This document shows, one piece after another, positions 1,629 to 21,157 of a stretch of 34,175 nucleotides of DNA. Location: the NCBI GenBank assembly GCA_019117485.1, contig DWZQ01000020.1:1-34175 (forward strand). The letters are read 5' to 3'. Within the stretch, counting starts at the first letter, position 1, and each line of letters starts with the position of its first letter. The translations under genes and the position numbers were made by a program. The DNA is from Candidatus Agathobaculum intestinipullorum (lineage in GTDB: Bacteria; Bacillota; Clostridia; Oscillospirales; Butyricicoccaceae). The notes below the pieces were generated by a model that was not told where the DNA came from, searched no databases, and saw only the letters and a list, made by a program, of their open reading frames with translations.

Positions 1629-1778
1629 TGCAGAAGCCAAGCTTCTGCATATAGGGGGTATCCGATACCCCCTATATACGAAAACAAGTTCCGGAAAAAC
1701 TTGTTTTCGATACCCCCGGTTTTCGCCGCACGGGCGGCGGGTCGGGGACAAAATCCGAGGCACAGGTCCCCGGATTTT
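1629..1778. repeat. Hairpin array A (nusG-rplK spacer)
   Basis: Three near-contiguous perfect palindromes lie here. They are a 9-bp stem with a CAA loop (1629-1649), a 13-bp stem ATATAGGGGGTAT with a CCG loop (1649-1677), and a 12-bp stem CGAAAACAAGTT with loop CCGGAAA (1679-1709). A fourth unit has two interleaved, overlapping pairings: AAAATCCG (1750-1757) with CGGATTTT (1771-1778), and GGGGAC (1744-1749) with GTCCCC (1766-1771). None is followed by a T-run, so they are not ordinary terminators. The CCGAG...CCCGG core of the fourth unit and the AAGTTCCG...AAACTT pattern of the third recur in array C after rpmH. The remainder to 1860 shows only weak stems and no clear promoter. Confidence 0.75.
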
Positions 1779-1882
1779 GGAATGAAACGTCGCTTCGCTC
1801 CCGATAGAGCGTTGCGTGTGGGAGAGTTCCCGCAAACGGGACTCGCCAATCACCACATTTATTGAAGGAGGAACCTTTCAAC

Positions 1883-5821: not shown

Positions 5822-6193
5822 ATGACTGTTGCAGAGATTATGGAAGCTGTAAAAGAGCTCAAGGTTATGGAGCTCTCTGAGCTGGTAAAGGCTCTTGAGG
5901 AAGAATTCGGCGTATCCGCTACCCCGGTTGCGGTAGCTGGTGTTGCTGGCGGCGCTGGTGAGGCTGCTGCTGCTGACGCGAAGACCGACTTCGACGTTGT
6001 TCTGGTTGACGCTGGTTCCTCCAAGATCAACGTTATCAAGGTTGTTCGCGAGATCACCGGTCTTGGCCTGAAGGAAGCCAAGGAGAAGGTTGATTCCGCT
6101 CCGCAGACCATCAAGGAAGCGGCTCCGGAGGCCGAGGCCAACGAGATCAAGGAGAAGCTCGAGGCTGCTGGCGCGAAGGTCGAGCTCAAGTAA
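5822..6193 (+). CDS. rplL: 50S ribosomal protein L7/L12
   Basis: The 123-residue protein has the N-terminal dimerisation helices (about residues 1-32), an alanine/glycine-rich flexible hinge (about 38-55) and a C-terminal factor-binding domain. The latter contains [25 protein letters not shown]7/L12 recruits translational GTPases. A CGGAGG site precedes the ATG. In most bacteria rpoB and rpoC follow. Here the gene is followed by hairpin array B, a terminator and a transporter gene instead. Confidence 0.97.
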
Positions 6194-6194
6194 G

Positions 6195-6319
6195 AGACCT
6201 TGCGGTCTTTCGATTGAAACTACAGTTTCAATCGAGTTAGATGTATCGAAAAGCCGGGCAAAGCTCGACTTTCCGATGCCGCTCACAGAACGGCTGAATG
6301 ACGCGCGCTACGGCGCGAA
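6195..6319. repeat. Hairpin array B (after rplL)
   Basis: The modules in order are as follows. AGACC-TTGC-GGTCT at 6195-6208. A 26-nt perfect hairpin with 11-bp arms starting TCGATTGAAAC and loop TACA at 6210-6235. A 33-nt hairpin with AAA loop at 6245-6277, holding the core CCGGGCAAAGCTCG at 6254-6267. A short CCG/CGG unit near 6279-6293. Finally ACGCGC(N5)GGCGCGAA at 6301-6319. The 26-nt, 33-nt and ACGCGC modules recur in the same order after rpmH (array C), with paired-arm substitutions. A true terminator follows at 6337. Confidence 0.8.
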
Positions 6320-6336
6320 AATTTCTCAAGTAAGCG

Positions 6337-6373
6337 CGGCAGGTATTGCTTTGGCGATACCTGCCGTTTTTTT
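6337..6373 (+). terminator. Intrinsic terminator of rplJL
   Basis: The 10-bp stem CGGCAGGTAT (6337-6346) / ATACCTGCCG (6357-6366) is followed by seven T residues. Confidence 0.93.
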
Positions 6374-20780: not shown

Positions 20781-20915
20781 ATGAAGAGAACGTATCAGCC
20801 CAAGAAGCGCCAGCGCTCCAAGGAGCATGGCTTCCGCAAGCGTATGCGCACGACGAACGGCCGCAAGGTACTGGCCCGTCGCCGCGCCAAGGGCCGCGCA
20901 CGCTTGACGCACTAA
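20781..20915 (+). CDS. rpmH: 50S ribosomal protein L34
   Basis: The 44-residue basic protein reads [20 protein letters not shown] and ends [10 protein letters not shown], the full L34 pattern. The next half includes [22 protein letters not shown] site lies upstream at 20764-20769. A frame open from 20676 is only the leader read through. rpmH normally abuts rnpA, but here 431 bp intervene, filled by hairpin array C, a terminator and a separate rnpA leader. Confidence 0.97.
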
Positions 20916-20924
20916 AAAAGTGCT

Positions 20925-21116
20925 TCGATGAAAACCACGGTTTTCATCGAGAGGGGTTTTGCCGAGTAAAACCCGGACAAAACCCAAGAAGAAAAAAGTT
21001 CCGACACGCGAAACTTTTTTCTTCCCTTGTATCAAAAGACCGGGCAAAGCTCGGCCTTTTGATGAAAAGAAAAACAGGGCTTTTCTTTTCTGTTGAATAC
21101 GCGCCGGCGGCGCGAA
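20925..21116. repeat. Hairpin array C (after rpmH)
   Basis: Six modules follow one another. (1) A 26-nt hairpin, arms TCGATGAAAAC/GTTTTCATCGA with loop CACG (20925-20950). (2) GGGTTTTG/CAAAACCC around a CCGAG...CCCGG core (20954-20985). (3) A 13-bp stem GAAGAAAAAAGTT/AACTTTTTTCTTC (20988-21024). (4) A 33-nt hairpin with the core CCGGGCAAAGCTCG (21031-21063). (5) GAAAAGAAAA/TTTTCTTTTC (21064-21090). (6) ACGCGC(N4)GGCGCGAA (21099-21116). Modules 1, 4 and 6 match array B in order and length. Modules 2 and 3 resemble units of array A. Confidence 0.8.
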
Positions 21117-21126
21117 GGGGACTGCA

Positions 21127-21157
21127 ACGAGCCGCAGAGCATGCGGCTCGTTTTTTT
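21127..21157 (+). terminator. Intrinsic terminator after rpmH
   Basis: The 10-bp stem ACGAGCCGCA (21127-21136) / TGCGGCTCGT (21142-21151) is followed by a T-run to 21157. It separates rpmH from rnpA. Confidence 0.92.

What the first reader, a model, noticed from the sequence alone, without database searches (positions are those of the whole stretch)
6195..6319. Composite palindromic element B shares module order with element C 14.7 kb away, with compensatory changes in the stems
Seen: the 26-nt hairpin (B 6210-6235, C 20925-20950) differs at arm positions 6 and 7, and both opposite-arm bases change to restore pairing. The 33-nt hairpin (B 6245-6277, C 21031-21063) has the same length, loop AAA and 14-nt core CCGGGCAAAGCTCG. 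A G-C pair in one copy is A-T in the other. ACGCGC(N4-5)GGCGCGAA follows in both. Order is the same and C has extra hairpins inserted between. Covariation between copies means the fold, not the sequence, is maintained, so this looks like a mobile or amplified structured element rather than chance. I do not recognise it as a named repeat family.
Basis: seen in the sequence. Interest (0 to 1): 0.75.

Follow-up and report, generated by a model that had tools for sequence, protein, structure and literature searches.

The report
Modular hairpin repeats after stop codons
Two similar strings of DNA hairpins in a gut bacterium belong to a larger family of repeated hairpin modules that sit just behind genes, keep their folds while their letters change, and in one form appear to jump into gene-end signals like a small transposon.

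Summary
B (behind rplL) and C (behind rpmH) share hairpins H1, H4 and H6 in order; a third relative lies at 1650-1780. They belong to a dispersed family, probably of Agathobaculum: 17 places here carry an H4 model match plus the other modules, 3 more came from an H1 pattern. A model of one subtype matches 25 of 25 genus genomes and 6 of 62 others of the family. In 16 copies, 30 of 43 base pairs changed on both sides.

A 3' half (H4-H5-H6) is combined with different 5' halves, even at one and the same rpmH site. A third form has inverted-repeat ends resembling those of an IS1182-type transposase fragment in this genome and lies between two copies of a whole terminator stem-loop. 8 of 19 IS1182-like loci examined show the same duplication, a pathway drawn in a 2017 model.

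B and C show no such ends. B looks like a recent gain: 16 of 16 relatives read lack it. Function is unproven. Covariation could come from DNA template switching as well as RNA selection. New variant of a known kind.

The parts
1650..1780 (+). third family member (gamma subtype), in the gap between the ORFs at 1091-1627 and 1862/1883-2308
   Evidence: model R2, E 3e-20; sequence
5822..6193 (+). rplL (L7/L12), gene upstream of B
   Evidence: TIGR00855, E 4e-42
6195..6208 (+). short hairpin AGACC-TTGC-GGTCT at the left of B; possibly the rest of a longer terminal hairpin
   Evidence: read, placed; homology is inference
6210..6235 (+). B, H1 (26-nt hairpin)
6245..6277 (+). B, H4 (33-nt hairpin)
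   Evidence: R1 match 6243-6278, E 6.3e-10 in the genome
6278..6294 (+). B, H5 (GCCGCTCACAGAACGGC), near-identical to H5 of the beta subtype
6301..6317 (+). B, H6 (ACGCGC...GGCGCG)
6185..6194 (+). left copy of a 10-nt direct repeat CTCAAGTAAG (other copy 6325-6334); not above chance
   Evidence: C has an equally long repeat, score 10, p95 of cross pairs 9.0
6325..6334 (+). right copy of the same 10-nt repeat
6337..6366 (+). terminator hairpin of rplL, followed by a T run
20781..20915 (+). rpmH (L34), gene upstream of C
   Evidence: TIGR01030, E 9.6e-21
20925..20950 (+). C, H1
20953..20985 (+). C, H2
20988..21024 (+). C, H3 (AAGTTCCG...CGAAACTT type)
21031..21063 (+). C, H4 (33-nt hairpin)
   Evidence: R1 match 21029-21064, E 6.7e-12 in the genome
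21064..21090 (+). C, H5
21099..21114 (+). C, H6
   Evidence: H6 alone remains at the rpmH site of 8 genomes
21126..21152 (+). terminator hairpin of rpmH, followed by a T run

Best explanation
B and C are copies of a dispersed, non-coding, modular palindromic element of this genus. A shared 3' module (H4-H5-H6) is joined at GTATC to one of several 5' modules (alpha: H1-H2-H3, as in C; gamma: Ha-Hb-Hc; beta: H1 alone, the core that B resembles). Shown by sequence: the copies, the covarying stems, different 5' halves at one rpmH site, and a beta form with terminal inverted repeats lying between two copies of a terminator stem-loop. Inferred: beta is a MITE moved by an IS1182-type transposase that joins its ends at the feet of a terminator stem-loop, so that the whole hairpin is duplicated; the left copy loses its T run, the right copy keeps it, so the gene still has a terminator. 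Inferred: B and C are uncapped copies, spread earlier or by recombination between copies, whose stems are kept paired by template switching, by selection, or both. Most likely effect, a guess: as part of the 3' end of the mRNA they slow 3'-to-5' exonucleases. Odds: dispersed modular family 0.95; beta moved by an IS1182-type transposase 0.85; barrier function 0.3.
For: Copies: 16 places at E <= 2.8e-4 in the own genome, 24 of 25 genus genomes with R1 at E <= 0.01, 53 matches in G009 and 52 in G016, reverse-strand double counts included; R2 in 25 of 25 genus genomes and 6 of 62 other family genomes. Covariation: 30 of 43 pairs changed on both sides, 95.3% of cells paired against 78.6% shuffled and at most 50.0% slid. 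Modules: at the rpmH site alpha in G000, G004, G012, G007 and, degenerate, G022; gamma in G016, G014, G023; G012 and G014 share 116 of 135 aligned columns in the 3' part but only 38 of 57 in the best local match of the 5' part. Beta: 13 of 16 elements with both ends found have flanking repeats scoring above every one of 240 cross pairs, and the repeats are mostly a whole stem-loop 0-2 nt from the ends; 19 of 23 above p95 in a second count. Transposase: an IS1182 N-terminal fragment in the own genome at a contig edge begins with CAGTCTGTCGAAAAAG next to a hairpin, 15 of 16 letters the same as the reverse complement of the common beta right end and 13 of 16 the same as the left end (compared by eye). 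Duplicated stem-loops at 8 of 19 IS loci. B absent at the rplL site in 16 relatives, no model match there.
Against: B and C have no recognisable right end of the beta kind, and alpha (3 of 36) and gamma (0 of 24) copies mostly lack it and lack flanking duplications (7 of 35 and 1 of 23), so how they spread is not shown. No transposition was observed. The own IS1182 copy is only a fragment, below the curated cut-off; PF13751 found none in the own genome, and loci L167-L177 showed no matching ends. No RNA data.
Confidence: 0.6

Rival explanations
1. A true structured cis-acting RNA of mRNA 3' ends or intercistronic gaps, with a regulatory or protein-binding role, kept by selection on the RNA fold; the mobile form is a later capture.
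For: Strong covariation with conserved linkers (ATATAC, GATACCC) in gamma. Alpha and gamma copies begin a median of 5 and 1 nt after an upstream stop where a same-strand ORF was called; 53 of 74 alpha and gamma entries with a called left neighbour are sense (p 0.00026; crude longest-ORF rule, some loci counted in two sets). A G.T pair is kept at one H4 position in 51 of 58 distinct sequences, G-C in 7.
Against: G.T 8 and A.C 14 of 1142 cells, no excess of RNA-tolerated wobble (tRNA control 20 and 0 of 264). Antisense copies exist, and at the infB-rbfA gap the own copy lies opposite to those of relatives. The alternative GATACCC:GGGTATC helix has no covariation support. Copies are absent from orthologous sites in many relatives.
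Confidence: 0.25
2. Selfish or neutral DNA only: palindromes kept perfect by template switching and conversion between copies, with no host function.
For: Equal rarity of G.T and A.C; G012 and G007 share 128 of 130 columns of the 3' part at rpmH while H1 and H2 differ in both arms and still pair; template switching is described to create and repair stems (PMC8794818, passages).
Against: Terminator-like hairpins in the same loci show similarly few G.T (53) and A.C (39) of 2194 cells, and the difference from the elements is not significant (p 0.096), so the wobble test does not decide. The stop-proximal position is not explained by mutation alone.
Confidence: 0.3
3. Ordinary terminators or chance hairpins that happen to look alike.
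For: B and C lie beside terminators, and G+C-rich intergenic regions hold many hairpins; the weaker rows were of this kind.
Against: H1 and H4 have no T run and a separate terminator follows both B and C; model statistics.
Confidence: 0.02

Closest known systems
IS1182 family (IS1272, TnSha1) and its expected MITEs
   Same: Structure-directed insertion at stem-loops, often terminators; terminal inverted repeats; own genome holds a transposase fragment of this family with near-identical end (PMC5678879 and PMC4923244, passages).
   Different: IS1272 and TnSha1 delete or replace the target stem-loop and make no target duplication; here the whole stem-loop is duplicated, the pathway b that PMC5678879 draws as a model. 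Only the beta form has the ends; B and C do not.
BOX elements of Streptococcus pneumoniae
   Same: Modular composition, intergenic, variable number of inner modules, stable folds (recalled; PMC3049150 seen only as listing and start of abstract; BOX, RUP and SPRITE mentioned in PMC10969869, passages).
   Different: Unrelated sequences; here 5' modules are exchanged in front of a fixed 3' module and stems covary throughout.
REP/BIME elements
   Same: Extragenic palindromes at 3' ends of genes, possible exonuclease barrier (recalled).
   Different: Ordered multi-hairpin units of about 110-200 nt; a RAYT transposase was not searched for.

Membership tests
MITE of the IS1182 family (beta subtype) | terminal inverted repeats shared with an autonomous element of the same genome | tested here: met
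   15 of 16 (right) and 13 of 16 (left) letters, compared by eye; the partner is a fragment at a contig edge
MITE of the IS1182 family (beta subtype) | same target behaviour as autonomous relatives | tested here: met
   stem-loop duplication in beta and at 8 of 19 IS loci; 1 had unlike hairpins on its two sides, 2 were cut by a locus end, 8 had other ends or none found
MITE of the IS1182 family (beta subtype) | mobilisation by the transposase | not testable with these tools
   needs an experiment
MITE of the IS1182 family (B and C) | terminal inverted repeats | tested here: not met
   right-end matrix scores -1.4 and -1.2, shuffled p99 7.0
MITE of the IS1182 family (B and C) | target site duplication | tested here: inconclusive
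   10-nt repeat at B, but also a 10-nt repeat at C
Rfam family | match above gathering score | tested here: not met
   0 in the window; 17 weak matches in 10 loci, all below gathering
REP/BIME with RAYT | Y1 (RAYT) transposase in the genome | not tested
BOX element | boxA, boxB, boxC sequences | not tested
   no sequence comparison was made

The most novel reading that the evidence does not exclude
A genus-wide family of stop-codon-proximal DNA palindrome cassettes that evolve by swapping whole 5' modules in front of a fixed 3' module at the same site, keep perfect pairing at the DNA level, and were captured by an IS1182-type transposon whose structure-directed insertion duplicates the entire terminator, so that each insertion leaves the gene with a working terminator and a new folded 3' end.
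Probability: 0.3. Interest if true: 0.75.

Novelty: new variant of a known kind. Interest (0 to 1): 0.62.

Why it matters
It offers a natural data set for two open questions. First, whether compensatory changes in hairpins always mean selected RNA structure, or can be made by replication: hundreds of copies with known orthologous sites could tell. Second, how structure-directed transposons treat their target: the duplication of a whole stem-loop, drawn as a model for IS1272, is visible here at many insertions. It also warns that covariance evidence for new bacterial RNAs can come from mobile palindromes.

Tried and rejected
PF13751 transposase search: none in the own genome; 9 of 25 genus genomes, whose 11 loci showed no matching ends. 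The IS1182 model NF033551 then gave the lead. Target duplication at B: rejected as not above chance. Alternative helix GATACCC:GGGTATC: no covariation support. Wobble asymmetry as proof of a DNA-level process: undecided, because terminator-like hairpins behave alike (p 0.096); the tRNA control (20 to 0) is biased, since the tRNA finder prefers paired stems. The hit L012 in another family was set aside as chance after reading its surroundings. Two false H1 picks (L071, L116) were dropped before the count; they are still. In one search, G018 (wrong match) and G021 (no rpmH found) were dropped, leaving 23 of 25. In one search, 2 of 85 copies were left unclassified. In one search, copies whose H4 is not 36 nt were left out (76 rows, 58 distinct). 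The matrix was built from beta ends, so its 21 of 23 for beta is by construction. Literature: 8 searches. In one search, 10 of 151 papers were listed and none of the 10 held Agathobaculum or Butyricicoccus. I found no description of this family in these searches; this is no proof of absence.

Full report
Observation. B and C are as described, with corrections: three compensated differences in the 26-nt hairpin, and in the 33-nt hairpin two compensated pairs but three uncompensated ones. B lies between rplL and its terminator, C between rpmH and its terminator.

Host. 

Copies. The exact core occurs 3 times in the own genome and in 10 of 40 relatives, 9 of them of the same genus. A model of the 33-nt hairpin (R1) gives 29 rows in the own genome at E <= 10, 16 of them at E <= 2.8e-4. 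By eye, 17 places carry the wider module order. A pattern for the first hairpin added three places, one of them without H4. In the genus, 24 of 25 genomes match R1 at E <= 0.01. A model of the gamma subtype (R2) matches 31 of 87 genomes of the family: 25 of 25 of the genus, with 3 to 35 matches each and 19 in the own genome, and 6 of the other 62. R2 also matches the alpha copy C, so its counts are not of gamma alone, and only 38 candidates per genome were scored.

Anatomy. The 85 copies analysed fall into alpha 36, beta 23, gamma 24 and 2 unclassified by a simple rule; B was put in alpha by that rule, but its H5 is that of beta. Units: alpha H1-H2-H3-H4-H5-H6; gamma Ha-Hb-Hc-H4-H5-H6; beta terminal hairpin-H1-H4-H5-H6-right end. 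Some copies carry an alpha-like core inside a beta-like shell (L106, L124, L126). Some G016 copies have extra sequence inside the loop of H4 (L144-L146) or of H6 (L129, L144).

Covariation. In 16 gamma copies, 30 of 43 pairs have changes on both sides; 95.3% of cells are paired, against 78.6% in 500 shuffles (0 of 500 reach it) and at most 50.0% after sliding. RNAalifold on the same alignment predicts 49 pairs, 31 with both-sided changes. In 58 distinct H4 sequences, 345 of 348 cells of the outer stem are Watson-Crick. In 34 distinct H1 sequences, 334 of 340 are.

What the covariation means. G.T and A.C pairs number 8 and 14 of 1142 cells. For 12 tRNAs the numbers are 20 and 0 of 264, for 254 terminator-like hairpins 53 and 39 of 2194. 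The elements differ from the tRNAs (p 7e-6) but not significantly from the terminator-like set (p 0.096). So nothing here shows strand-specific RNA selection, and nothing excludes it. Template switching can create and mend stems in one step (PMC8794818, passages).

Module exchange. In the rpmH gap, 23 of 25 genomes could be read: alpha in G000, G004, G012, G007 and, degenerate, G022; gamma in G016, G014, G023 (also by model); H6 alone in G020, G006, G005, G015, G019, G017, G003, G001; H6-like only in G009 and G008; other remnants in G013 and G010; nothing in G002, G024, G011. G012 and G007 agree in 128 of 130 columns of the 3' part, while their H1 and H2 differ in both arms. G014 keeps a similar 3' part (116 of 135 with G012) behind a gamma 5' part (38 of 57 in the best local match). 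The own copy and G016, the closest by RnpA (97%), also differ in 5' half; their 3' parts agree in 88 of 130 columns, with an extra hairpin in G016. I read this as replacement of 5' modules at a fixed 3' module; independent gains are not excluded.

Mobility. Beta copies are bracketed by two copies of a terminator stem-loop: 16 of 24 elements had both ends found, and 13 of these 16 have flanking repeats scoring above the best of 240 cross pairs; in a second count 19 of 23 lie above p95. By eye, left copies run into the element instead of a T run, and many right copies keep it. The own genome holds IS1182 transposase fragments; one at a contig edge starts with CAGTCTGTCGAAAAAG beside a hairpin. 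Of 19 related IS loci inspected out of 30 fetched, 8 lie between two copies of a whole stem-loop, 1 has unlike hairpins, 2 are cut off and 8 show other ends or none. [quoted passage not shown] PMC4923244 (passages) reports terminator targets and partial deletion. That some IS1182 members have long direct repeats is recalled, not from a call.

B and C. Neither shows the beta right end, and the 10-nt repeat flanking B is matched by one at C. B is absent behind rplL in 16 relatives read, and no model match lies there. C belongs to a site occupied in several species.

Position. Where a same-strand ORF was called on the left, alpha copies start a median of 5 nt (n 23), gamma 1 nt (n 19; a second set 5 nt, n 11) and beta 43 nt (n 15) after its stop; the gamma start was set at a fixed offset. 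53 of 74 alpha and gamma entries are sense; the neighbours were picked by a longest-ORF rule that errs (it picked antisense ORFs at rplL and rpmH), and some loci occur in two sets. At infB-rbfA the own copy is antisense and those of G003, G012, G016 and G017 are sense (rbfA by NCBIfam; infB recognised by eye).

Verdict. A real, little-studied family: modular palindromic repeats with an IS1182-type MITE branch. The parts are of known kinds; the combination, the module exchange and the clear stem-loop duplication are unusual.

Noticed in passing
window 1650-1780: A third family member, gamma subtype, lies upstream of the ORF at 1862-2308; model E 3e-20.
   Followed up: partly
L205, L206, L209, L210, L211, L214, L227, L232: Full or near-full IS1182-type elements of other genomes of the order lie between two copies of a whole terminator stem-loop.
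   Followed up: partly
L207: One IS copy of G220 has unlike hairpins on its two sides, as if two copies had recombined.
   Followed up: no
L072 against L008, L009, L010, L014: At the infB-rbfA gap the own element lies opposite to those of four relatives: inversion in place or independent insertion.
   Followed up: no
L144, L145, L146 of G016: Extra sequence with its own inverted repeat inside the apical loop of H4, as if hairpins were inserted into hairpin loops.
   Followed up: no
L018 of G016: Parts of two elements in tandem, each with a similar terminator hairpin behind it.
   Followed up: no
L211: The two copies of the target hairpin differ by an apparent inversion of the loop, a mark described for template switching.
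   Followed up: no
L155 of G009 and L120 of G002: Behind what looks like the same gene (pheS, recognised by eye), one genome has an alpha-like and the other a gamma element.
   Followed up: no
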